A stretch of 64,000 nucleotides of DNA. Source: Lentzea aerocolonigenes (GTDB lineage: Bacteria; Actinomycetota; Actinomycetes; Mycobacteriales; Pseudonocardiaceae). This document shows, piece by piece, positions 1,162-51,089 of the stretch. Below the pieces are notes generated by a model. It was not told the origin of the DNA. It did not search any database and saw nothing but the letters and a program-made list of their open reading frames with translations. Location: positions 62,001-126,000 of the forward strand of contig NZ_BBOJ01000021.1 in NCBI RefSeq assembly GCF_000974445.1, in the 5' to 3' direction. Position numbers and translations under genes: made by a program. Every line of letters starts with the position of its first letter. Within the stretch, counting starts at the first letter, position 1.

Positions 1162-3588
1162 CTACGAACCGGTGGAGTGGAGGTTCGCGACCTCTGCGGC
1201 GGTGAGGGCGCGGCCGTAGATCCGGAAGGAGTCCACGGCACCGTCGAGGAACGGGTCGTTGTCGTACTGCGAGCGCCCGATCCAGTTCTGCGTGGTGTTG
1301 CCCGGCCGCAGGGTCAGCGCCGCGTTGCGCGCCACCTCCGCGCCGTTGACGTACAGGACGCCGAGGTCGCCGCTCTGGGTCACGGCGACGTGCGTCCACA
1401 CCCCTTGCGGGAGTGCTGCCGGGGCGTTGATCTGTTGCTCCGCGCCCGCACCTCCGGTCGTGACCGCGAACCGCGCGCCACCCGCCGAGCTGCGCGGGGT
1501 GAGGAAGGCGTAGGCGCCGGTACCGCTGCCGAAGTCGAAGATCCGCGTCCACGTGGTGACGGTGTCGAGCCGCACCCAGGTGGCCACGCTGAACGCCGCG
1601 GCTCCGGCGAGCAGGCCCGCCGGCAACGTCACGTGCGCGCCGGACCCGGTCAGGTCGACCGCTTGCCCGGTCCGCCCGGTCGTCCACGCCGCACCACCCG
1701 CGAGCGCGGCGGTCAGGCCGTTGCCCGTGGCGTCGTTCGTGTTGCCGTCGAACGGGTAGTGCGCGATGAAAGGTGGCGCCTCCGCGGCCACGGTCCAGTA
1801 GACGGTGTAGCGCTGGCCGTGCATCTTGTAAAACGGCAGCAACGTCACCTGGCCGGTGCTCGCCGTGGCCGTGTACTGCAACGGGGTCGCCGTGGGCCTG
1901 ATCGTCGACGGTTGCAGCGACGGCATCGACTGCAGGTCGTTCGTGCCGTAGGCGCCCGCGAGCACGATCGGTCCGTGCCGCATCGCCTGCACCGAGCGGT
2001 TGTCCGGAGTGGACTCCCGCTGCAGTGTCATCGGCAGGCTGATGTCGACGACGTCACCGCTGGTCCACGTGCGGTCGATCCGCGCGTACTCACCAGGAGT
2101 CACGCCTTGTGGCCCCCCGTTGACCCGGATCTGCGCCCCGGAGGCCCAGGCCGGGACGCGCACGCGCAGGTCGATCGCGCCGGACCCGGTGATCGTGATC
2201 TTCGAGGTCTCGCTCTCCGGGAACGAGGTCTCCTGCCGCACGGTGAACCCGCGCCAGCTCAGCGTCGACGCGATGAACAGGTTGACGTACAGCGTCGTGC
2301 CGGAGTGGGCGTAGATGCGGCCGGTGTGCGCGGTGTTGGTCTCCATCCCGGTGCCGTGGCAGCAGGTGAAGTCGTCGTAGTCGTTGCTGTACGTGCGGAT
2401 CCCGCCCGGCCGCAGCGGTGTGTAGTAGCTGTGGTGGCCGTGGGTGGAGCTTGGGTTCTGCGCGCCGAGCAGGTGGTTGTAGAGCGTCCTCTCGTAGAAG
2501 TCGAAGTACCTGCTCGCGGGGCTCGTGCGGAACAGCTGCGCGGTGAGCTTGAGCATGTTGTAGGAGTTGCAGGACTCGCAGGTGTTGTCCGAGAGCTCGG
2601 ACGCGATCCGGCCGGGTGCCTTGAAGTACTCGCCGTTGGAGTTGCCGCCGATCGCGTAGCTGTGCGAGCCGGTGACGATCTCCCAGAAGTTGCTCGCGAT
2701 GTCGCGGTACCTCGTCGTGCCCGTGGCGTGGTACTCGCGGATCGCGCCGATCGCCTTGGGGATCTGGGTGTTGGCGTGGTAGCCGTTCAGCGCGTCCCGG
2801 TTCTGCGCGAGCGGGTCGAAGATCTCCGCGTGGTCGAAGTACTGGGCGGTGGTGAGGTGCGCGGGGTCGCCCGTGAGCTGGTAGAGGTTGGCCAGCACCT
2901 CGTTCATCCCGCCGAACTCGGTGTCGAGCATGTTCTGGCGCTGGTCGTGGGTGAGCCTGCCGTTGCGCCACGCCGCCCACGCCGCCTTGCGGGTGAGCAC
3001 GGTCAGCGCCTGCTGGTTGCCGGTCAGCAGGTGCACGTCGAGCAGCCCGGCCATGATCTTGTGCAGGGTGTAGTACGGCGCCCAGACCTGCTCGCGCGCC
3101 TCGACCCTGCCGATGAAGCTCTCCGGGAACGCCGACAGGTAGCCGGTGCTGAAACCGCCGTTGCGGGCCCGGTCCTGACACAGCGCCAGCTGCTCGACCA
3201 GGTAGTTCGCCTTGGCGGAGAACGCCGTGTCACCGGTGGCCGCGAACGCTTGCGCGAGCGCGCTCAGCACGTGCCCGGTCGAGTGACCGCGCAGTTCGGT
3301 GGACGGCGACTCCCACCCTCCACAAGGGACAGCTCCGGACGGGAGCGAGACGTTGCGGCGGAACGTGTGCAGCAACCGGTCGGGGTCGAGGAACCTGAGA
3401 TAGGTGTGGGTGCGGGTCGTGTTGTCCCGGAACGGGCCGGGCAACAGGGACACCGCGCCGAGCGGGAACAGTTCGGCGGACACCCCGATGTCGGGGCGTG
3501 CCGCGGCGAACGCGCGCACGGGCAGGGCCGCCACCGCGACGGCGGCGGCACCCGCACGCAGAACTGTGCGTCGAGAGGGAGTGAGCAT
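1162..3588 (-). CDS. Tat-secreted GH127 beta-L-arabinofuranosidase with C-terminal LamG domain
   Basis: 808 aa. The N-terminus has a twin-arginine signal (SRRTVLR, then a hydrophobic Ala/Val stretch). The catalytic body is GH127 (formerly DUF1680). The zinc and nucleophile set is visible: E338-S-C340 in CESC, and C409-C410 in FTCCHGTG, matching the Glu/Cys3 zinc site and Cys nucleophile known for the family. From about residue 605 to the end lies a concanavalin A-like (LamG) domain starting at IAHYPFDG, probably for carbohydrate binding. GH127 enzymes cleave terminal beta-L-arabinofuranose, classically from hydroxyproline-linked oligo-arabinosides. It starts 4 bp after the metalloprotease stop and has only a weak ribosome site, so it is probably translationally coupled. 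Confidence 0.92.
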   Translation of the reverse strand: MLTPSRRTVLRAGAAAVAVAALPVRAFAAARPDIGVSAELFPLGAVSLLPGPFRDNTTRTHTYLRFLDPDRLLHTFRRNVSLPSGAVPCGGWESPSTELRGHSTGHVLSALAQAFAATGDTAFSAKANYLVEQLALCQDRARNGGFSTGYLSAFPESFIGRVEAREQVWAPYYTLHKIMAGLLDVHLLTGNQQALTVLTRKAAWAAWRNGRLTHDQRQNMLDTEFGGMNEVLANLYQLTGDPAHLTTAQYFDHAEIFDPLAQNRDALNGYHANTQIPKAIGAIREYHATGTTRYRDIASNFWEIVTGSHSYAIGGNSNGEYFKAPGRIASELSDNTCESCNSYNMLKLTAQLFRTSPASRYFDFYERTLYNHLLGAQNPSSTHGHHSYYTPLRPGGIRTYSNDYDDFTCCHGTGMETNTAHTGRIYAHSGTTLYVNLFIASTLSWRGFTVRQETSFPESETSKITITGSGAIDLRVRVPAWASGAQIRVNGGPQGVTPGEYARIDRTWTSGDVVDISLPMTLQRESTPDNRSVQAMRHGPIVLAGAYGTNDLQSMPSLQPSTIRPTATPLQYTATASTGQVTLLPFYKMHGQRYTVYWTVAAEAPPFIAHYPFDGNTNDATGNGLTAALAGGAAWTTGRTGQAVDLTGSGAHVTLPAGLLAGAAAFSVATWVRLDTVTTWTRIFDFGSGTGAYAFLTPRSSAGGARFAVTTGGAGAEQQINAPAALPQGVWTHVAVTQSGDLGVLYVNGAEVARNAALTLRPGNTTQNWIGRSQYDNDPFLDGAVDSFRIYGRALTAAEVANLHSTGS

Positions 3589-37210: not shown

Positions 37211-38218
37211 ATGATGCGGAATCGCCTTGACCGGACGGAGCTGACCGTGTGGAGCTGGCTCGATTCGTTTTGGCCTTTGGTGGTAGCGCTGGAAACCTGG
37301 CTGCTGGTCCGGGTCTGGCGCCATCCGGATCTCCGGCTGCCGTTCGGCAGGGGAAAGCCCGCTTTCCGCGTGGGAGCGGCCGGAGCGCCGAGCGAGATCC
37401 AGTACTACGCGTTGAAGCACCAGCCGAGACGTGCCCGCGTCCGCGTGCGCCTGCACGACACCGCGGCGAACGTGAAGCTCATGGACGCCAGGAACTTCCG
37501 CCGTTACGAGAAGGGCGAGAAGCACCGCTACCTCGGCGGCTACTGCCGGAAGTCGCCGGTCTACCTGGACATCCCGTACGACGACCGGTGGTACGTCACC
37601 CTCCACCGGCAGGCCGACGGGCGCATCCCGAACTCGATCAAGGTGTACGGCCCCGACCTTCCACCGATGCCCGAGTTGCCGGCCATGACGCCGGAGTCGT
37701 CGCTGGTGCGGATCAAGGAGAACTTCGACCTGCTGACGACAGAACTGGAGAAGGAGGCGGAGCAGAAGGACGTGTTCGTGTCGTACGCGAGCGAGGACGG
37801 CCCGACCGTGGCCCACCCGCTCGCCAGGCTGCTCGTCAAGGCCGGGTTGTCCGTGTGGATCGACCAGTACGAGCTGAGGACGGGTGACCCGTTGCGACGC
37901 AAGATCGACAACGGCATCGCGAGCAGCAGGTTCGGCGTCGTGGTGCTGTCACCGGACTTCTTCCGCAAGGGCTGGCCACAGGCGGAGCTCGACGCCCTCC
38001 TCACGCGCGAGATCGACGACGACCGGCAGTGGGTTCTCCCGATCTGGCACCGCACCACCAAGGAGGAGGTCCGCAGGCACAGCCCGCTGCTGCTGGGACG
38101 GATCGCCCGCAGCACGAGCGACTACCTGATCGAGGACATCGCGGAGGAGATCGCCGGGATCGTGCTCGGTGCCGGCACGAGCGAGGACGAGCTGCCGGTG
38201 GCCGGCAGCCCAGGCTAG
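37211..38218 (+). CDS. DUF1883-TIR protein, possible NADase effector
   Basis: 335 aa from the ATG at 37211; a TTG at 37133 is in frame but unlikely. Residues 14-36 form a hydrophobic segment (SFWPLVVALETWLLV). Residues about 62-146 match DUF1883 (YYALKHQP, VKLMDARNFRRYEKG, YLGGYCRKSPVYLDIP). Residues about 187-315 are a TIR domain: KDVFVSYASED, WIDQYELRTGD, and WPQAELDALL with the Glu (residue 259) in the place of the NAD-cleaving Glu of known TIR enzymes. DUF1883 is a recurrent partner of bacterial TIR domains and probably the sensing part. A defence role is inferred. Confidence 0.88.
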   Translation: MMRNRLDRTELTVWSWLDSFWPLVVALETWLLVRVWRHPDLRLPFGRGKPAFRVGAAGAPSEIQYYALKHQPRRARVRVRLHDTAANVKLMDARNFRRYEKGEKHRYLGGYCRKSPVYLDIPYDDRWYVTLHRQADGRIPNSIKVYGPDLPPMPELPAMTPESSLVRIKENFDLLTTELEKEAEQKDVFVSYASEDGPTVAHPLARLLVKAGLSVWIDQYELRTGDPLRRKIDNGIASSRFGVVVLSPDFFRKGWPQAELDALLTREIDDDRQWVLPIWHRTTKEEVRRHSPLLLGRIARSTSDYLIEDIAEEIAGIVLGAGTSEDELPVAGSPG

Positions 38219-40867: not shown

Positions 40868-43174
40868 GTGGGCAGTAGCAGGGTGAACGGCTCGGTGCAG
40901 GGCACCGTGGTCCAGGCGCACTCCATTACCGGTGACGTCCATCTTCACGGTGGCACCGGGCACAGAGTCACGCCCCGGCAACTACCTGCCGTCGCTTCAC
41001 ATCTCTTCACGGGCAGGCAACAGGAACTGCTGGCGCTCACCTCCGCACTGCACGGATCGCGAATAGCCGTGATCCGCGGAGTCGGCGGTGTCGGCAAAAC
41101 GTGGCTGGCGCTGCAATGGGCGCACCGCAACGCCGAGCAGTTCCCCGACGGGCAGCTCTTCGTCAACCTCCGCGGCTTCTCCCCCGACGGCAGGCCCTCG
41201 GCGCCGGACACCGTGCTGCGGGGGTTCCTCAAAGCACTCCAGGTCTCGCCGTCCGCCATGCCGGACGACCTCGACGCGCAGGCGGGCCTGTACCGCAGCC
41301 TCGTGGCGGAACGGCGGATGCTCGTGGTCCTCGACAACGCGGCGAACGTCGCCCAGGTCAAGCCGCTGCTGCCGGGAGGGTCGAAGTGCACGGTCGTCGT
41401 GACGACCCGCCGCGATCTCGGCGGGCTCGTCACCGCCCACGGCGCCCGGTCCGTGCCGCTCGACGTGTTCGACGAGGTGTCCGCGTTGCAGCTGCTGGCC
41501 CGTCGTCTCGGGCCCGGACGCCTGATGGCCGAGCCCAGGGCGACGAAAGGGCTGCTGCGGTGCAGCGCGGGACTTCCGCTCGCGCTCGGCATCGTGGCCG
41601 CCCGCGCGTCCACCCACCCGTGCTTCCCGCTCGGCCTGCTGGCCGACGAACTGTGCGACACCACGACCCGGCTGGACGGCCTGGACGCCGGTGACACCGA
41701 CTCCAGCCTGCGCGCCGTGCTCTCGTGGTCCCACGCGGGACTCTCCGACGACGCGGCGCACCTGTTCGGACTGCTCGGCGCGGTACCGGGGCCGGACATC
41801 GCGCTGACGTCCGCGTTCAACCTGGACACCCGTCCCGCGTCAGCGACCCGGATGCTGTTGCGCGAGCTGGAGGCGGCGCACCTGGTGCAGCAGCACGTGC
41901 CGGGGCGCTACCGGATGCACGACCTGGTCCGCCTCTACGCCAAGGAGCAGAGCGCGGCGCTCGACCGGGAGCCCGCCCTCACCCGGCTGTTCGAGCACTA
42001 CGTCAACACCGCCGCGTGCGCGGTGCACGTCCACTACCCGCACGGCAGGCACAGCAGTCCACTCGGCGACACCCGGCCGGTGCCGGGCATCTCCGACCCG
42101 GACACCGCCACGGCGTGGATCGAGGCGGAACGGCTGAACCTGGTGGCAACGGCCAGGTTCGCCGCGGAAGTCGGCTGCCCGGTCCTGCCGAACCGGCTGT
42201 CGGTCACCCTGTGGGCGTACCTGCTCAACCACTCCCACCACCACGACGCGCTCGCCCTGCACACCTACGCGCTGCGGGCCAGCTGGAGGGCGGGCGACCG
42301 CGCGGGCGAGTGCCGGGCGTTCATCAACCTCGGGACCGTGTACGAGAGGTTGCGGCGCTACGCGGAAGCCGCTGACCACCTCGAAGAAGGGCTCGCGCTG
42401 AGCCGCGAGATCGGCGACCGCACCGAGGAGTGCCGTGCGTTGAGCAACCTCGGCATCGTGTGCTGGCTGACCGGCGACTACGCGGGTGCCGTCGAGCACC
42501 TGGAAGCCGCGCTCGCGTTGAGCAGGGAGCTCGAAGACCCGGACCTCGAGTCGTACGCGCTGTGCAAGCTGGGGTTCGTGTACCGCTCGCTCGACCGCCT
42601 CGACGACGCGGCGAGTCACCTGCGAGCCGCGCTGACCATGACGCGGCACCTCGGCGACCGGGTCGACGAGGCGTTCGCGTTGTGCGACCTCGGCGCCTGC
42701 TACGTGCTGATGGACCGGCCGGACGACGCGCTTCCGTTGCTGCAGCGGGCTTTGGAGCTGAGCCGCGAGATCGGCGAGCGCGCCGCGGAGGCGCTGACGC
42801 TCACGTTCCTCGGCGCCCTGCACCGCCGCACGGGCCACCACCGGGAGGCGGTGGAGGCGTTGAACACGGCCGCGGGCGTGAGCCGCCGGCTCGGCGACCG
42901 GTGCCTGGAAGCCAAGGCGTTCAACGAACTCGGCGAGGTCTACACGGCGATGGGCGATTCGGTGCGGGCGATCGGCTGCCACTGCTTCGCGATCGTGCAC
43001 GCCATGTCGATCGGTGACGCCTACGAACTGGGCCGGGCGCACGACCGGCTCGCACGGGAACACCAGCGCTGCGGTGCGGTCAAGGACGCCGCCCACCACC
43101 GCGCCGAGGCCGCCAGGGCGTTCGGGTCGATGACTCTGCCCCTCGATTCCGCGAGAACCTCGGACGCCTCATGA
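40868..43174 (+). CDS. NB-ARC-TPR NLR-like ATPase with N-terminal amyloid-like motif
   Basis: 768 aa from a GTG at 40868 without a ribosome site. Residues 8-27 (GSVQGTVVQAHSITGDVHLH) match the short VxGxVxQAxxIxGxV motif found at the N-termini of actinobacterial NLR-like proteins and proposed to act in amyloid-type signalling. Residues 45-350 are an NB-ARC-type STAND ATPase: P-loop GVGGVGKT (71-78), Walker B MLVVLDNA (151-158), VVVTTRRD (176-183) and GLPLA (235-239). Residues about 478-718 are six 40-residue TPR repeats. There is no helix-turn-helix, so it is not an AfsR-type regulator. Likely a ligand-sensing switch that recruits an effector. Confidence 0.9.
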   Translation: MGSSRVNGSVQGTVVQAHSITGDVHLHGGTGHRVTPRQLPAVASHLFTGRQQELLALTSALHGSRIAVIRGVGGVGKTWLALQWAHRNAEQFPDGQLFVNLRGFSPDGRPSAPDTVLRGFLKALQVSPSAMPDDLDAQAGLYRSLVAERRMLVVLDNAANVAQVKPLLPGGSKCTVVVTTRRDLGGLVTAHGARSVPLDVFDEVSALQLLARRLGPGRLMAEPRATKGLLRCSAGLPLALGIVAARASTHPCFPLGLLADELCDTTTRLDGLDAGDTDSSLRAVLSWSHAGLSDDAAHLFGLLGAVPGPDIALTSAFNLDTRPASATRMLLRELEAAHLVQQHVPGRYRMHDLVRLYAKEQSAALDREPALTRLFEHYVNTAACAVHVHYPHGRHSSPLGDTRPVPGISDPDTATAWIEAERLNLVATARFAAEVGCPVLPNRLSVTLWAYLLNHSHHHDALALHTYALRASWRAGDRAGECRAFINLGTVYERLRRYAEAADHLEEGLALSREIGDRTEECRALSNLGIVCWLTGDYAGAVEHLEAALALSRELEDPDLESYALCKLGFVYRSLDRLDDAASHLRAALTMTRHLGDRVDEAFALCDLGACYVLMDRPDDALPLLQRALELSREIGERAAEALTLTFLGALHRRTGHHREAVEALNTAAGVSRRLGDRCLEAKAFNELGEVYTAMGDSVRAIGCHCFAIVHAMSIGDAYELGRAHDRLAREHQRCGAVKDAAHHRAEAARAFGSMTLPLDSARTSDAS

Positions 43175-43213
43175 TCATCTCCGTAGGATCACCCGTCGTC
43201 GAAGGGGGCACGG

Positions 43214-45889
43214 GTGTACGACGGGTTCATCTCCTACAGCCACTCGGCTGACCGGCCGCTCGCCAGGTCGTTGCAGCGCAGCCTGCACCGGATCGGCCGC
43301 CCCTGGTACCGGCCGAGGGCGCTGCGGGTGTTCCGCGACGACGTGAGCCTCGCCGCGAGCCCGGACCTGTGGTCGTCGATCCAGGACGCGTTGCTGGCGT
43401 CGCGCACCTTCACCCTCATGGCGTGCCCGGAGTCGGCCGCGTCGCCGTGGGTCGCCCGCGAGGCCGCCCTGTGGCGGGAGAAGAAGTCCAGGGACACGTT
43501 CCTGATCGTGCTGACCGGCGGTGAGCTGGTCTGGGACGACGAGGCGGGCGACTTCGACTGGGACCGCACCACCGCGCTGCCCCGGTGCCTGGAGGGCTGG
43601 TTCACCGCCGAGCCGCTGTGGGTCGACCTCCGCGAGCGGGAACGCCGCAGCGGCAAGGAGTTCCGCAGCGCGGCCGCCACGCTGGCGGCCGCGATCCACG
43701 GGGTCGCCAAGGACGAGCTGATCAGCGAGGACCTCCGCCAGCAGCGCCGGCTCGTCTCCGTGCTGGCGAGTCTGCTGACGCTGGCGCTCGTGGCGGGCGG
43801 TGTCGCGGTGTGGCAGCAACGGGTGGCCGTCGCACAACGCGACCGTGCGACCGAGCAGGCCAGGATCGCGCTGTCCAGGGCGTTGTCCGGTGAGGCGCAA
43901 CGGCTCATGTCCTCCGACCCGCAGCTGGCGGTCCGGCTCGCGCTGTCGTCGTGGAGCGCCAGCGGGTCCGTGCAGGCGAAGGCCGCGTTGATGAGCACGC
44001 TCGACCAGGCGCGGCACGTGGTGTCGATCGTCTCTCCCGGCACCGACACGGTGAGCCGCAACCGGCACGTGAGCGTGGCCACGCGCGCCAGTGTCGCCAT
44101 GAGCGCCGACGGGACGATCGCCGCCCACGCCTACTCCGACGGGAAGATCTCCTTGTGGGACAGCAAGTCCCGTCGACCCGTCACGTTCGCCCCGCCGGAC
44201 TGGACGTCCGCGCTGACGCTCAACGGCGACGGCAGTCTGCTGGCGGGCACCGACGGCTCGTCGGTGAAGGTGTGGAACACCAAGGACGGCTCCCTGACCC
44301 ACGACATCCCGATGTCAGGTGACCTGGACAGGTTGGCGATGTCGCCCAACGGCCGGTGGCTCGCCATCTCCGGCGGCAACTCCGGTGGAGCTACACCGGC
44401 GTTCGGCGTGTGGAACCTGGAGACCGGTCTTCCGGTGACCAAGGTCGAGGACCGCAACGCCCCCGGCGGTCCGCTGGAGTTCCACGGGGATCGCCTCTAC
44501 ACCGTCGACGGCCGCTCACCCGAGGCGAAGGTCGTGGTGTTCGAACCCGCGAGCAGCACCTGGTCGACGTTCGGTGCCGGCCGGGTCTGGCCGCACGGCC
44601 TGGCGGTCAGCGGATCGACGCTGGCGCTGCTCAACGGTTCCGCGCTCGAACTGTGGGACCTGGGCACGCGGACCAGGACGCACACGACAGAGGTGGGCGA
44701 AGACGCTTGCTGTGTCAGCGTTTCCGCCGACGGGCGACGCATCGCCGTTGGTACTGAGCAGGGTGCTGTGCTCCTGTACGACCAGACGCTCGCTCAGACC
44801 ACCCAGCTCTTCCAGCACCCCATCAACGTTCAGGACCTGCGGATGAGCGACGACGGCACACTCGTCATCTCGATCGCCGAGAACGGCACCGTCGTGGTGA
44901 CCTCACCGGACCGGGACGGCAGGGTGCGCGCCGCGGTGCAGGGACCGCCCGGCGTCAGCGGGGTGGCGGTGAGCGCGGCAGGGACTGCGGCGGTCTCCGG
45001 TTCGGACGGCGTCGTGCTGCGCGATCCGTCCACTCTGGCCGAGAAGTCGAAGTTCTCCGCGCCGGGCGGTGCCGTGCGCCTCAGTCCCGACGGGCAGCGG
45101 CTGTCCGTCGGCAGGCCGGGTGCCATCACCACGTGGGACACCACCACCGGCGCTCAGGTCGGCTCGATCGTCACCGACGAGATCGGTTTCCTCAGCGACA
45201 GCCGGCACCTGGTCACGGCCCGGTCCGATGGCACACCCGTGGTCGAGGAGGCCGGGAAGCGCGGGACGGCCCCGGTCGGCGGCTCCCCGCACGACCAGCA
45301 GATCGCGACGAACCTCAAAGGTGACGTGGTCGCCGTCGTGACGAAGGCGATCCAGCCTCACGAAGGCGGTGGGGGCACCGACCTGACGCTCTGGCGGTGG
45401 ACCGGCGGGGAGCTGGAGAAGATCCGCCAGGTCCACTTCGCCGCCCTCGTCCGGGGCTTCGCGGTGAGCGAAGACGGCGAGCAGGTGGCCGCGACGGACA
45501 TCGACGGCCGCGTGCTGCTCGACGACGGACGGCCCGGCGGACCGGTCGTGTTCGGCCGGGGCGTGGACAGCGCCTGGGCGTCGGTGGCCTTCGCGCCCGG
45601 CCTGGTCGCCCAGCAGCATCCCGAGACCGGCGAGCTCCTGCTGTGGAACAGCGCGGACGGTGGCGAGGTCGGCACCTGGCGGCACCCCGGCGCGGCGGGG
45701 AAGGTGACCAAGCTCGTCGCGACCGGTGACGGAGGGCTGTTGAGCGCCAAGGAGGACGGCCTGCTCACGTTGTGGGAAGGAAATCCGGACGCGTGGACGC
45801 GCACGTTGTGCACGACGGTCAGCGACGGTCTGTCCACAGAGGAGCGACAGCGCTACCTCGGTGACATCGACGTGCGCTGGCCGTGCTGA
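43214..45889 (+). CDS. TIR-transmembrane-WD40 protein
   Basis: 891 aa from a GTG at 43214 with GAAGGGGG upstream. Residues 1-165 are a TIR-like domain (YDGFISYSHSADRPLARSL; CPESAASPWVAREAALW with Glu 83 as candidate catalytic residue). Residues 181-199 are one membrane helix (SVLASLLTLALVAGGVAVW). A charged helical segment (QRDRATEQARIALSRALSGEA) leads into a WD40 beta-propeller region from about 260 to the end (ISLWDSKS, VKVWNTKD, LELWDLGTR, LTLWEGN). The TIR would face the cytoplasm and the propeller the other side, or vice versa; topology is unclear. Starts 39 bp after the NLR-like gene, with a -10-like TAGGAT between. Confidence 0.9.
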   Translation: MYDGFISYSHSADRPLARSLQRSLHRIGRPWYRPRALRVFRDDVSLAASPDLWSSIQDALLASRTFTLMACPESAASPWVAREAALWREKKSRDTFLIVLTGGELVWDDEAGDFDWDRTTALPRCLEGWFTAEPLWVDLRERERRSGKEFRSAAATLAAAIHGVAKDELISEDLRQQRRLVSVLASLLTLALVAGGVAVWQQRVAVAQRDRATEQARIALSRALSGEAQRLMSSDPQLAVRLALSSWSASGSVQAKAALMSTLDQARHVVSIVSPGTDTVSRNRHVSVATRASVAMSADGTIAAHAYSDGKISLWDSKSRRPVTFAPPDWTSALTLNGDGSLLAGTDGSSVKVWNTKDGSLTHDIPMSGDLDRLAMSPNGRWLAISGGNSGGATPAFGVWNLETGLPVTKVEDRNAPGGPLEFHGDRLYTVDGRSPEAKVVVFEPASSTWSTFGAGRVWPHGLAVSGSTLALLNGSALELWDLGTRTRTHTTEVGEDACCVSVSADGRRIAVGTEQGAVLLYDQTLAQTTQLFQHPINVQDLRMSDDGTLVISIAENGTVVVTSPDRDGRVRAAVQGPPGVSGVAVSAAGTAAVSGSDGVVLRDPSTLAEKSKFSAPGGAVRLSPDGQRLSVGRPGAITTWDTTTGAQVGSIVTDEIGFLSDSRHLVTARSDGTPVVEEAGKRGTAPVGGSPHDQQIATNLKGDVVAVVTKAIQPHEGGGGTDLTLWRWTGGELEKIRQVHFAALVRGFAVSEDGEQVAATDIDGRVLLDDGRPGGPVVFGRGVDSAWASVAFAPGLVAQQHPETGELLLWNSADGGEVGTWRHPGAAGKVTKLVATGDGGLLSAKEDGLLTLWEGNPDAWTRTLCTTVSDGLSTEERQRYLGDIDVRWPC

Positions 45890-45896
45890 CTCCTGG

Positions 45897-48800
45897 CTAC
45901 TGAGGACTCCACGCCTCCAGTCGTTTCTGCAGGCGGCCCAACGCATCGACGGTTTCCTTCGCCGCGGCGAGCGGCGTCAGCGCGCACACGGCGAGATCGA
46001 TGTGCTCGATCACCGCCGCTCGAGCACGCAGGCTCGACTGGGCGAACGCCCGGAAGTACTCCTCCACGACGGCGTCCTCGTTCTTCACCAGCTCACCGGA
46101 GATCAGCGCCTCGGCGAGTTTCGCGTCGGCAGGCGTGACGCGGGACCAGAAGTCGGGACGGCGCTCCGCGCGTGCGGCGGCGATGGAGCCCGCGATCAGC
46201 TTCCGCGCGTCCTCCTCGGCGAACGGCTGGGTGTCGTCGCGTTGGTGGGCGAGCCAGCCGAGCACGACGACGTTGAGCGCCGGGTAGAAGTTGATCGAGC
46301 CGTGCCGCTCGCGGTGGAGGTCGACGGCGCGCTGGTAGTTGTCACGCGCGTCGGCGAGCGCACTGGTCAGCTTTCCCGGGTCGCACGCCTCGCACAGCGC
46401 ACGTCTGCGCTCGACGCTCGCCTTCAGGGAGTAGCGCTCCGGCGTTTCTCCCAGCTGCAGGAGGAGATCAGCCGACTTGCCCGCGCGGTCCAGCAGTTCG
46501 GCCGCCACAGGACCGGGATCGTCCGGGCGCCGGATGCGTTCGACCGCCCATTTCGCCCTGACGTTCAGCAGTTGCTCGAAGGACCTGACCGAGCCGGACG
46601 CGTCCCAGTCGTCCTGGGCCTTCTCGTAGCAGCTGACCGCCTTGTCGTACCGGGCGAGCAACGCCCAGACGTCGCCGACGGCGGAGAGCTCGTGTCCTCG
46701 CAGCCACTCCGTCGGGGTCGACTCGAGCAACGTCTCCAGTTCCTTGGCCAGCGCCGTGGCCACGACGTCCGGCGCGTCCTCGGCACGTCGCTTCAACGCG
46801 GCGAGCTCGTCGGCCAGTTCGCGGGGAGCCACGAGCTCCTCCCGTTGCGCGGCCCCGCCCACCGCCGGATCCAGCCGGAACGCGGGCGGACCGTAGACCT
46901 GGTACGCGCCCCACGTGTTCGTCGACCGGTGGTGTTCCCAGACCGCCTTGCGGGCGTTGAGGCTCGCGATGCCCAGCTCACCGCCGTCCAGCAGCTCGTC
47001 GTAGATCGTCGTGGCGAACCGGTGTGCCGCCTCGTCCTCGACAGCCCAGCCCGCCGCGATCACGGAGCGCACCCCGTTCTCGATGAGCTGCCGCGAAATG
47101 CTCGACGCCAGCCGGTCCGCGCGGGGTGTGCCCTGGTCCGGCAGCTGCATCGCGCCGAGGTGACAGCAGTTGAGGAAGACGACGTCCGGCGTGGTGCGCA
47201 TCTTGGCGATCTCCAGCGCGCCGAGGTAGACGTCCTTCCCGATGATCACACCGCTGCGCGACGGGTCCTTGGCGTCGAAGTGGCCGTGTCCCGCGATGTG
47301 CACGATCCGGTACTCGTGCCGGAACAACGCGTTCAGGATCGGCACGACGTCATCGTCGTCGTCCACCCCGGCGATGATCGAGGTGACCTCGTAACCCTTG
47401 GTGCGCAACAGGTTCGCGACCTTCTTGGCCTCGTCCCGCGCCGCGGGCAGAGCCGGCATGCCGGTGCCCGCGGGATCACCGATGACCAGCGCGGCGTGCC
47501 CCGACGACGGACGGGTCGTCTCGGCGAACGTGCGCGTCTCCAGCCGGCGGATCACGCCGACCTCGACGGCGAGCGGCTGCACGTCCAGGTCGTGCGACCG
47601 GCTGGCGAGCATCTCCAGCGGCAGGGCACCGGCTTCCTCGTCGATGACCAGCAACAGGTTCTCGCTGCCGTAGCCCTGTCCCTTCAGCGAGTTGGGCACG
47701 AGCAGCTCGTACAACGTGTTGTACAGCTGCTCGTCCGGCTGGTGGTCCGCGATGGCCTCCGCGACGAGCGCGTCCAGCAGCTTGCGCTGGGCGGTGTTCA
47801 CCCGTTGCTCGGCGCGGGCGGATCGGCCGATGCTCGTGAACGAGAGCGCCCCGAGCCGTTGCGCGTCGCCACCGCTGTCCTCCGCGACGATCCGGACGGT
47901 GCGCCAGATGCCCTCGCGGTAGGCCGACGGCGCACCGGGCTTGCCGTCGAACCCGGTGAGCATGCGGCGTTCGACGACGACCTCGCCGCCCTTGACGTCG
48001 AGCGTCTGCGCCAGCCGCACGGCCGCCTTCGTCGCCTGGATCGCCCGCTCCTCGTACATCTCGACGATCCTCAGCTCGTCGATGACGACCCGTGAGCGCA
48101 GGTCGTCCAGCCTGCGGTTCGCCTGGCGGACACCGGACACGATCGACGTCAGCGAGTTCTCGACCGGCATCGGCGGCACGAGCGCCGTGCCCACCAGCAC
48201 CGCGGAGATCGACAGCGGGGCGGGCGACTCGCCTTCGGGCGTCCGGTCCTCCTGGATCGCGGCGAGCCTCAGCACCGCCTGGGTGACGCCCGCGGTCAAC
48301 GCACCGGGCGTGAGGTCACCGGCGTCGCCGAGCCCGATCACCATCGCGGCCGGTCCGCCGGAGGACCCGAACACCTCGCACGTCCCGAGCCTGCCGGGGT
48401 ACTGGCGGAACGCCGCGCGCCGCTCGAGTGCTCCCTTCAGGTGGGCGTCGAGGGCCTTCTCCGCTCCGCTGATCGGCGTGCCGTCCTGGTGGCCGACGAG
48501 CACCGCGCCCTCTTCCCAGCGCAGATCCCCGTGCACGACACCGACCTTGAGCACCCGCCGCCGCGTGGCCGAGCGTCCTCCGCCCCACGCCAGCCGGACG
48601 AGTTCCTCCGCGGTCGGCAGCACGAGAAGACCACGTGGATCGGTGAGCGGGCCCGACGCTCCCGGCTTGGCCGTCGGGGCCGTGAGCAGCTTGCTCGGCG
48701 GCCGTCCGGCGAGGAGGTCGAGCACAGCGGACACGGTGTCCGGATCCGACGGCAGGTCCGCGTGCGGCACGAGCGCGTACCACCTCGCGGGCCCGTCCAG

Positions 48801-51089
48801 GCGATCACTCGGACATGGTGCGAACCCGTCGCCGTTCGGAGAGACGTCGTAGCCGCCGTCGGAGTTGGTGCCGCACACGGTCTGCTCGGCACTGCCGTAC
48901 ACCGCGCTGATTCCCGTCCAGCTGGGAGGGATCAGGCGCTTTCGCCGTTCCGCGCCCTCTTCCGGCAGCAAGTCCTTGAGGATCGGCCAGTCCTCGAGCC
49001 ATTCGGCGACCCGGGTGGCGTCCGCGGTGTGGTCCAGCAGGGCCAGCGCCGCGGTGAACTCGTCCTTGCCCTCCAGCCGCGCCTTGACGAGCCAGCTGCC
49101 CTCCAGCGGCGGTCCGAGCAGCACGGCCCTGCCGCCGGCCCGGTTCCACTCCGACCGCAGGGGCTCCGACGACAGCGCGGCGAGCAGCACCAGGCAGCCC
49201 GCGCCGTGCGCCACCACGTGCGGAGTCCCGTCGCGCAGTTTCTCCGCGAGGTCGGCCGCCAACTCGTCGAGCTCGCGGCGCCAGTCGAACTGCCACGGCG
49301 TGACGTTGTGCTGACCGGCCAACGCCGAGCTCAGCACCGAATAGCCGTCGACGAGCCCGCCGGGTTTCGCCTCACCGTCCGTGAGAACTTCTTCCGGGCC
49401 GTGGCCGACCAGTTCCGCCAGGTTCGGCCACACGAGCTGGTCCCCGCGCGCCAGCGTCGAGCCGAACAGGTCGGGCACGAGCAGGACCTGCCCGGTGATC
49501 TCGGTGGTCCCGCCGCGTTTGACCGGCCACTGCGGCGGCGGCGGGGTCTCGAAGCCCTGGGCGCCGTTGCCCGCGAGCCAGTTCTCCAGCGCCTGCCTGC
49601 TGTCCTCGTTGGCGAAGTAGCCGCCGTGGTTGACCGACGGCCCCTGGAAGAACGCGCGCTGGGAGGCCTCCCTGCTGACTCCGCCGGACATCGACGACGT
49701 CGGCACCACGAAGTCGTGGTTCTCGCCGTAGAAGAGGTCCGCGCCCTGCACCAGCAACCGGTTCAGCACGCCCCGGCCCTGCACGTCGCCCGCGATGGAC
49801 CCGAGCCCGTCGGCCAGCGGTGGCGCCGCGAGCAGCATCCGCAGGAACGGCGACTCGGGCATCTGCGCTTCCAGTCCCGGCATCACCCTGGGATCGGTGC
49901 GCTGCTCCAGCATCGTCAGCAGGAACTTCTTGATCAGCGCAGCGATCCCGGTGTCCCGCAGCACGGGCACGAGGTTGAACACGTTGAACAGGAACGAGGC
50001 CCAGCGGTCGATGCGCCCGGACGCGAGCGTGGTGCCCATGGCCGGGCAGGCGACGCGCACGAACCGTTCGACCCGGAGCCCGCGTCCGCGGAGGTTGTCG
50101 CGGAGGTCGCGCAGAGCCTGGTGGTCAGGGTGGTCCGGCACGCCGGCGTACGCGGCGAACGACGGTTCGTGTCGCGCCGCGTAGCTCAGCACCTCGCCGA
50201 CCAGCCCACCGCGCGAGTGGCTCACGAGGTGCAACGGCGCGTCCGGCAGCACCTCGACGGCGTCCAGCGCGTTCTGCGCGGGCGTCTTGCCCAGCGTCGC
50301 GTGTTCGAACGCCAGCACCCGGCCCTCGTACCGGTCGACGATCCGTGCCCACTCCGAGGTGCCGCGCAGCTTCCCGAACGCCGCCTCGGTGTGCGAGAAC
50401 GTCCCGTGCAAGAGGACGAGATAGGGCTTCTCGCTGTTCGGAAGCGGCGCCGTGTGCCGCCCTTCCTTCTCCAGGAGGAGCTTCTCGTCCACGGTGTAGA
50501 CGCCCCGGATCTTGGGCTTGCGCCGCCGCACCGACTCTTCCGCCTCGTCCGCGACCGGCGCGTCGACCCAGTTCGTGATGGTCTCGACGGCCTTCTTCGC
50601 CGCCGACGTCAGCACGAAACCGGACAACCTCCCCGCGATCACCCCGGCGCCGCCGAGCACGCCCGACCTGGTCAGCACAGGTCCGATCTCGGCGTCGAGG
50701 TCGCTCAGCGCCTTCGTGACACCGGGTGGCAGCGTGATCTTCGAACGCCGCACGCTCGCGACCCGTGAACCCCCGTCGCGGCTACGTTCGCCGAGGAACG
50801 GCGTCACGTCGAGCGGCCCCGGCACCGCACCTCGCGTGGCACCGCGCCGCGCCTTGTCGACGAGCGTGGCGGCCCGGTAAAAGCTGACCACGCCGTCGGT
50901 GTCCGCGACCTCGACGACGTCGTCATCGTCACCGGAGAGCAGCACGGGACCGGTGTCGCCGCGGCTCACCCCCGCGACGTCGACCTCGCGCCGCACGACG
51001 TAGCCGACATCCCCGCCGTAGAGTTCCGCGAACTCGTCGCGACCCGCCGGCTCCTCCGCCGGTCTCCCTTGGACGGTGAACTCGGCCAT
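45897..51089 (-). CDS. Alpha/beta-hydrolase-CHAT protease-TPR multidomain protein
   Basis: 1,730 aa from the ATG at 51089 (AGGAGA 10 bp upstream); the frame is open to 51209. In order: N-terminal acidic region; PGAP1/DUF7379-like hydrolase at about 180-500 with LLHGTFSH and nucleophile elbow SHSRGG (Ser 292); second LCAT-like hydrolase at about 530-790 (LLVPDLFGSTLARGDQLVW) whose elbow reads AHGAGC, lacking the Ser; a segment resembling the aminopeptidase-type N-terminal domain (PAAMVIGLGDAGDLTPGAL); a CHAT caspase-like protease with His 1268 (HIAGHGHFD) and Cys 1309 (VFLNCCHLG); and a helical TPR-like C-terminus from about 1420. Convergent with the TIR-WD40 gene (7 bp apart). Probably a regulated protease/lipase effector. 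Confidence 0.88.
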   Translation of the reverse strand: MAEFTVQGRPAEEPAGRDEFAELYGGDVGYVVRREVDVAGVSRGDTGPVLLSGDDDDVVEVADTDGVVSFYRAATLVDKARRGATRGAVPGPLDVTPFLGERSRDGGSRVASVRRSKITLPPGVTKALSDLDAEIGPVLTRSGVLGGAGVIAGRLSGFVLTSAAKKAVETITNWVDAPVADEAEESVRRRKPKIRGVYTVDEKLLLEKEGRHTAPLPNSEKPYLVLLHGTFSHTEAAFGKLRGTSEWARIVDRYEGRVLAFEHATLGKTPAQNALDAVEVLPDAPLHLVSHSRGGLVGEVLSYAARHEPSFAAYAGVPDHPDHQALRDLRDNLRGRGLRVERFVRVACPAMGTTLASGRIDRWASFLFNVFNLVPVLRDTGIAALIKKFLLTMLEQRTDPRVMPGLEAQMPESPFLRMLLAAPPLADGLGSIAGDVQGRGVLNRLLVQGADLFYGENHDFVVPTSSMSGGVSREASQRAFFQGPSVNHGGYFANEDSRQALENWLAGNGAQGFETPPPPQWPVKRGGTTEITGQVLLVPDLFGSTLARGDQLVWPNLAELVGHGPEEVLTDGEAKPGGLVDGYSVLSSALAGQHNVTPWQFDWRRELDELAADLAEKLRDGTPHVVAHGAGCLVLLAALSSEPLRSEWNRAGGRAVLLGPPLEGSWLVKARLEGKDEFTAALALLDHTADATRVAEWLEDWPILKDLLPEEGAERRKRLIPPSWTGISAVYGSAEQTVCGTNSDGGYDVSPNGDGFAPCPSDRLDGPARWYALVPHADLPSDPDTVSAVLDLLAGRPPSKLLTAPTAKPGASGPLTDPRGLLVLPTAEELVRLAWGGGRSATRRRVLKVGVVHGDLRWEEGAVLVGHQDGTPISGAEKALDAHLKGALERRAAFRQYPGRLGTCEVFGSSGGPAAMVIGLGDAGDLTPGALTAGVTQAVLRLAAIQEDRTPEGESPAPLSISAVLVGTALVPPMPVENSLTSIVSGVRQANRRLDDLRSRVVIDELRIVEMYEERAIQATKAAVRLAQTLDVKGGEVVVERRMLTGFDGKPGAPSAYREGIWRTVRIVAEDSGGDAQRLGALSFTSIGRSARAEQRVNTAQRKLLDALVAEAIADHQPDEQLYNTLYELLVPNSLKGQGYGSENLLLVIDEEAGALPLEMLASRSHDLDVQPLAVEVGVIRRLETRTFAETTRPSSGHAALVIGDPAGTGMPALPAARDEAKKVANLLRTKGYEVTSIIAGVDDDDDVVPILNALFRHEYRIVHIAGHGHFDAKDPSRSGVIIGKDVYLGALEIAKMRTTPDVVFLNCCHLGAMQLPDQGTPRADRLASSISRQLIENGVRSVIAAGWAVEDEAAHRFATTIYDELLDGGELGIASLNARKAVWEHHRSTNTWGAYQVYGPPAFRLDPAVGGAAQREELVAPRELADELAALKRRAEDAPDVVATALAKELETLLESTPTEWLRGHELSAVGDVWALLARYDKAVSCYEKAQDDWDASGSVRSFEQLLNVRAKWAVERIRRPDDPGPVAAELLDRAGKSADLLLQLGETPERYSLKASVERRRALCEACDPGKLTSALADARDNYQRAVDLHRERHGSINFYPALNVVVLGWLAHQRDDTQPFAEEDARKLIAGSIAAARAERRPDFWSRVTPADAKLAEALISGELVKNEDAVVEEYFRAFAQSSLRARAAVIEHIDLAVCALTPLAAAKETVDALGRLQKRLEAWSPQ

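What the first reader, a model, noticed from the sequence alone, without database searches (positions are those of the whole stretch)
40868..51089. Candidate immune locus: NLR-like NB-ARC-TPR, TIR-TM-WD40 and hydrolase-CHAT-TPR giant
Three adjacent large genes combine a STAND sensor with an amyloid-like N-terminal motif, a membrane-bound TIR with a propeller sensor, and a giant protein with lipase and caspase-like protease domains. TIR, CHAT and NB-ARC are each established bacterial conflict or cell-death modules. Finding all three side by side, with the NLR and TIR genes 39 bp apart and the CHAT gene convergent at 7 bp, suggests one multi-effector system. Seen: domains and layout. Inferred: joint function and defence role.
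Basis: partly seen in the sequence, partly recalled or inferred. Interest (0 to 1): 0.75.

Follow-up and report, generated by a model that had tools for sequence, protein, structure and literature searches.

The report
TIR-linked giant lipase–caspase protein, plus neighbours
The three genes are real but do not travel as one conserved immune cassette; the surprise is the giant gene, which belongs to an unnamed, widespread family that joins lipase and caspase-like protease domains in one protein and, in distant bacteria, is repeatedly found beside or fused to NAD-cleaving TIR domains, which suggests a chemically triggered self-destruct enzyme.

Summary
Observation confirmed: genes, gaps and residues K77, E83 and C1309 are as described. 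The joint three-gene system is not supported. The NB-ARC gene's 79% orthologue and the TIR-WD40 gene's 61% orthologue each stand without the other two. The giant is absent from the other 23 sampled species of the genus, and its three closest orthologues (52–61%) lack this arrangement. The genome holds 74 NB-ARC, 32 TIR and 8 CHAT matches, so such neighbours are cheap. Gene 1's N-terminal RHIM/BASS-like motif is real, but genes 2 and 3 lack it.

Following the giant gave more. It is a full-length family (80 loci kept, ten phyla): hydrolase with invariant Ser-Asp-His; LCAT/PLA2G15-like hydrolase (nucleophile lost here); M17-N/macro-like domain; CHAT with invariant His-Cys; TPR-S. TIR domains lie in the flanks of 25/80 loci and are fused in five (13 of 50 tested versus 0.9 expected). 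A small C14 caspase sits directly upstream in ten. NCBI calls it only 'CHAT domain-containing protein'.

Best reading: gene 3 is a stand-alone, probably NAD-signal-gated lipase/protease with Thoeris-type-IV-like logic. Gene 2 may, but need not, supply its signal. Gene 1 is an unrelated neighbour.

The parts
45897..51089 (-). Gene 3: giant hydrolase–hydrolase–macro-like–CHAT–TPR-S protein, 1730 aa
   Evidence: Pfam; full-length homologues in ten phyla
49545..50432 (-). Alpha/beta-hydrolase 1 (DUF7379), aa 220-515; invariant S292, D459, H488
   Evidence: lipase fold
48675..49502 (-). LCAT/PLA2G15-like hydrolase 2, aa 530-805; nucleophile Ser replaced by G629 here
48045..48572 (-). M17-N / macro-like domain, aa 840-1015
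46890..47729 (-). CHAT protease domain, aa 1121-1400; H1268, C1309 invariant
46260..46652 (-). TPR-S domain, aa 1480-1610 (helical repeats continue to the C-terminus)
43214..45889 (+). Gene 2: TIR–TM–WD40 protein, 891 aa; candidate but unproven partner of gene 3
   Evidence: four such matches in this genome
40868..43174 (+). Gene 1: NB-ARC–TPR protein, 768 aa, with N-terminal RHIM/BASS-like motif at 40877-40945; judged not part of the same system

Best explanation
The locus is three genes without shared history in an accessory-rich actinobacterial chromosome, not one cassette. Its notable member is gene 3, a self-contained lipase–protease machine. Shown: it has an intact Ser-Asp-His hydrolase, a second LCAT-like hydrolase (inactive-looking here), an M17-N/macro-like domain, an intact CHAT His-Cys protease and a TPR-S domain; this order is conserved in full-length proteins of ten phyla; and in many genomes it is encoded beside, or fused to, TIR domains or directly behind a small caspase. 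Inferred: a TIR enzyme responding to infection or stress makes an NAD-derived nucleotide; the macro-like and/or TPR-S part of the giant binds it; the CHAT protease switches on and cleaves cell proteins and/or frees the hydrolase, which attacks lipids; the cell arrests or dies. The logic resembles type IV Thoeris (TIR signal to caspase-like protease). In this window the convergent TIR-TM-WD40 gene is a candidate but unproven source of the signal; the NB-ARC gene is not part of it.
For: No genome checked carries the trio: gene 3 absent in the 23 other genus members; gene 1 and gene 2 orthologues stand without the others; gene 3 orthologues sit beside rhamnosidase, PFL/CstA or Fur/catalase genes. 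Giant family: 80 loci kept; S292/D459/H488 and H1268/C1309 essentially invariant in 71 proteins. TIR in the flanks of 25/80 loci, five C-terminal fusions, Pfam-confirmed in L154. Of 50 loci with genome-wide TIR counts, 13 carry a TIR versus 0.93 expected, Poisson 2.5e-11; the label needs at least 17 changes on the tree. C14 caspase 14-130 bp upstream in ten loci. MAP3K-TRAF-binding/TPR-S (ASK-like) neighbours. Fold matches to Csx29 TPR-CHAT and to a macro domain. Literature: N7-cADPR activates a caspase-like protease in type IV Thoeris (PMC12847820); Thoeris macro domains bind ADPR (PMC11204291).
Against: No biochemical or phage data. The closest actinobacterial relatives mostly lack an adjacent TIR (none near L096 and L097; L093's is 5.8 kb away; L095 lies on a short contig), so in this clade the giant may act alone or with an unlinked partner. 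The window clade has diverged in the macro-like loop (GTALVPPM instead of the frequent GTGxGG), so its ligand may differ or be lost; in sequence the domain is nearest to M17-N domains, which are not known to bind ADP-ribose. TIR-carrying loci are partly related to one another, so the Poisson value overstates independence.
Confidence: 0.5

Rival explanations
1. Genes 2 and 3 form a working pair: the membrane TIR-WD40 protein senses a trigger through its propeller, makes an NAD-derived signal, and the giant is its effector; gene 1 is a bystander.
For: TIR adjacency and fusion are enriched across the giant's family; a next-door TIR is expected for under 1% of random genes in this genome (32 TIRs; my estimate). 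A WD40 protein end lies directly upstream of the orthologue in the Centralia MAG (L094).
Against: Gene 2's 61% orthologue and other close homologues have no giant nearby; its TIR subtype is not the one fused to giants; the genes are convergent, whereas most partner TIRs are co-directional.
Confidence: 0.27
2. One three-gene multi-effector immune system, with the NB-ARC protein as sensor or amyloid scaffold.
For: Tight spacing (39 bp and 7 bp); all three domain types are known conflict modules; BASS motifs elsewhere pair NLRs with CHAT or TIR effectors (PMC7889193).
Against: No relative carries the trio; no shared motif in genes 2 and 3; NB-ARC–TPR genes are very numerous in this genus.
Confidence: 0.07
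3. The giant is not an immune effector but a housekeeping or stress lipid/protein hydrolase, and its TIR and caspase neighbours reflect shared residence in accessory islands.
For: Many copies sit alone among metabolic genes (L096, L097, L116, L155; Paracoccus plasmid); no PADLOC model matches well.
Against: Patchy distribution (5 of 151 family genomes, only 4 of these full-length), direct TIR fusions and operonic caspases go beyond island co-residence.
Confidence: 0.2

Closest known systems
Type IV Thoeris (TIR, N7-cADPR, caspase-like protease; Rousset et al. 2025 as cited in PMC12847820)
   Same: A TIR enzyme linked with a caspase-fold protease effector; an NAD-derived signal is the natural hypothesis.
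   Different: The effector here is about 1700 aa with two lipase-type hydrolases, a macro-like and a TPR-S domain; the TIR partner varies, is sometimes fused, and is convergent here.
Type II Thoeris TM-macro ThsA (PMC11204291)
   Same: Macro-fold sensor downstream of a TIR.
   Different: The giant's domain is nearest to M17-N in sequence and its effectors are protease and hydrolase, not a membrane pore.
TPR-S / ASK-like nucleotide-signal systems (Burroughs & Aravind 2020, from memory; paper not held)
   Same: TPR-S domain; neighbours with MAP3K-TRAF-binding/TPR-S architecture.
   Different: I could not check whether this exact hydrolase–hydrolase–macro-like–CHAT–TPR-S protein was described there.
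Csx29/Craspase TPR-CHAT and SAVED-CHAT
   Same: CHAT fold and His-Cys dyad.
   Different: Added hydrolases, C-terminal TPR-S, no SAVED domain, no Cas7-11 seen among called neighbours.
BASS3/RHIM-type NLR amyloid signalosomes (PMC7889193)
   Same: Gene 1 has an N-terminal RHIM-like motif on an NB-ARC–TPR protein.
   Different: No adjacent effector carrying the matching motif.

Membership tests
Thoeris (type IV) | TIR gene beside a caspase-fold protease effector gene | tested here: met
   gene 2 TIR ends 7 bp from gene 3
Thoeris (type IV) | TIR and effector in one operon | tested here: not met
   genes 2 and 3 are convergent; operon statement from PMC12847820
Thoeris (type IV) | TIR-made cADPR isomer activates the protease | not testable with these tools
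   needs biochemistry
CHAT proteases | CHAT fold with His-Cys dyad | tested here: met
TPR-S proteins | Match above the Pfam PF20308 cut-off | tested here: met
   38.0 versus 27.6 bits
Macro / ADP-ribose-binding domains | Macro fold with ligand-binding loop | tested here: inconclusive
   fold match to 2dx6 and M17-N; loop altered in the window clade
BASS amyloid signalosome | NLR with N-terminal RHIM-like motif | tested here: met
   (sequence resemblance only)
BASS amyloid signalosome | Adjacent effector carrying the same motif | tested here: not met
   no copy in other called window genes
Craspase (type III-E CRISPR) TPR-CHAT | Association with Cas7-11/gRAMP and CRISPR | not tested
   no dedicated CRISPR search was run
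PADLOC-listed defence systems | Confident match to a curated system protein | tested here: not met
   only weak partial hits for the giant (SAVED_CHAT 3e-5, BovA 2e-4)

The most novel reading that the evidence does not exclude
The giant defines a new, widespread class of TIR-gated immune effector: one polypeptide that reads an NAD-derived messenger through a macro-like/TPR-S sensor and fires both a caspase-like protease and a phospholipase-type hydrolase, sometimes with its own fused TIR as a one-protein pathway. In this genome the neighbouring membrane TIR-WD40 protein is its trigger.
Probability: 0.22. Interest if true: 0.78.

Novelty: new variant of a known kind. Interest (0 to 1): 0.5.

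Why it matters
If the inference holds, TIR-to-caspase signalling of the type IV Thoeris kind has a much broader, unnamed branch in which protease and lipase effectors are joined in one giant protein across ten phyla. The TIR fusions and upstream caspase operons make the order of sensor, signal and effector directly testable. It also shows that impressive trios of conflict genes in large actinobacterial genomes need a co-occurrence test before being called a system.

Tried and rejected
Three-gene cassette: rejected by lack of co-occurrence. Gene 1 as amyloid trigger of gene 2 or 3: no partner motif. Pure coincidence of TIR and CHAT: weakened by the family-wide TIR enrichment, though not excluded for this window. 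Empty-site comparison: flanking TetR and epimerase orthologues lie on different contigs in the only relative holding both (G020), so no insertion boundary could be shown. A tblastx neighbourhood comparison was uninformative at high GC. The six-row motif alignment A4 contained sequence endings that I had typed wrongly; it was replaced by A5 and not used. One family-wide search failed technically and was rerun smaller. No held paper mentions DUF7379; Burroughs & Aravind 2020 is not held. My simple gene caller missed some giants (e.g. L095), which were then found by tblastn.

Full report
What is there. The three ORFs are as described. Gene 1 is an AfsR-like NB-ARC–TPR protein. Gene 2 is TIR – transmembrane segment – WD40.

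Are they one system? The genome is 10.7 Mb and rich in such genes: 74 NB-ARC, 32 TIR and 8 CHAT matches, and at least 41 relatives of gene 1 at E<=1e-60. Within 24 genomes of the genus, gene 3 has no full-length homologue outside this species. The best gene 1 orthologue (79%, G011) and the best gene 2 orthologue (61%, G009) each stand without the other two genes. Gene 3's orthologues (Umezawaea endophytica 61%, an actinobacterial MAG 58%, a Pseudonocardia MAG 52%) sit by alpha-L-rhamnosidase/DUF2252, Fur/catalase, and PFL/CstA genes. The trio was found nowhere else.

Gene 1's motif. The N-terminal RVNGSVQGTVVQAHSITGDVHLH segment recurs in several homologues, and similar segments precede other NB-ARC proteins of this genome, in line with bacterial RHIM-like BASS motifs (PMC7889193). 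No other called gene in the window carries a copy, so there is no local amyloid partner.

The giant. A profile of the four orthologues drew 94 relatives from GTDB, of which 80 loci were kept. In 71 long homologues, S292, D459 and H488 (hydrolase 1) and H1268 and C1309 (CHAT) are essentially invariant. The second hydrolase matches group XV phospholipase A2 and LCAT; its nucleophile is Ser in 60 of 71 but Gly in the window, and no actinobacterial copy keeps the Ser. The next domain matches M17-aminopeptidase N-domains (Pfam E<1 in 23 of 33 members, best 7e-9; 3jru) and, by predicted fold (mean pLDDT 83), a macro domain (2dx6, TM 0.75 by target length). A GTGxGG loop is frequent in the family but altered here. 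The CHAT part matches Csx29/Craspase and SAVED-CHAT. NCBI names plasmid copies only 'CHAT domain-containing protein'; no phage copy was found.

The company it keeps. TIR domains occur in the flanks of 25 of 80 loci, mostly within a few kilobases and co-directional, and are fused to the giant's C-terminus in five (Pfam-confirmed for L154). For 50 loci with genome-wide TIR counts, 13 carry a TIR against 0.93 expected. The label needs at least 17 changes on the tree (the window was counted as TIR), so the association recurs, though related loci make the p-value optimistic. A C14 caspase lies 14-130 bp upstream in ten loci. TPR-S/MAP3K-TRAF-binding proteins are another recurrent neighbour. In the actinobacterial clade the link is weak: Umezawaea has a TIR 5.8 kb away, the Centralia MAG has the end of a WD40 protein directly upstream at a contig edge, L096 and L097 have none, and L095 lies on a short contig.

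Mechanism. The most economical reading is a nucleotide-gated protease/lipase effector: TIR product, macro-like/TPR-S sensing, CHAT activation, then proteolysis and/or lipid attack. The precedents are type IV Thoeris (N7-cADPR to caspase-like protease; PMC12847820) and macro-domain Thoeris effectors (PMC11204291). Anatomy and associations are shown; signal, activation and outcome are inferred. Whether gene 2 is the giant's partner here is open, about one in four by my judgement.

Verdict. Ordinary as a trio; interesting as an entry to an unnamed giant family. New variant of a known kind.

Noticed in passing
window 37280-38218 (+): A second TIR protein (TIR at about 37772-38056) lies 7.8 kb from the giant; its N-terminal part looks like a separate small domain.
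   Followed up: partly
own genome C51:129320-130177 (L007, L011): One 1519-codon open frame holds both a CHAT and a TIR match: a second TIR–CHAT combination in the same genome.
   Followed up: no
L177 (own genome C53:58444): A RHIM-like motif also precedes a transmembrane segment in a 282-codon frame without an obvious NB-ARC domain.
   Followed up: no
L134: Azotobacter chroococcum has two giant homologues close together (1830 and 1874 aa).
   Followed up: no
L106, L144, L163, L164, L171: Clostripain (C11) family proteins recur near giant homologues, a further protease in the same neighbourhoods.
   Followed up: partly
L191 (Azotobacter plasmid NZ_CP066312.1): A giant homologue sits beside a type I restriction-modification locus with Fic proteins and transposases.
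   Followed up: no
window 3195-3282 (+): ARAGORN calls a tRNA-Val inside a long ORF on the other strand; it may be a false positive.
   Followed up: no
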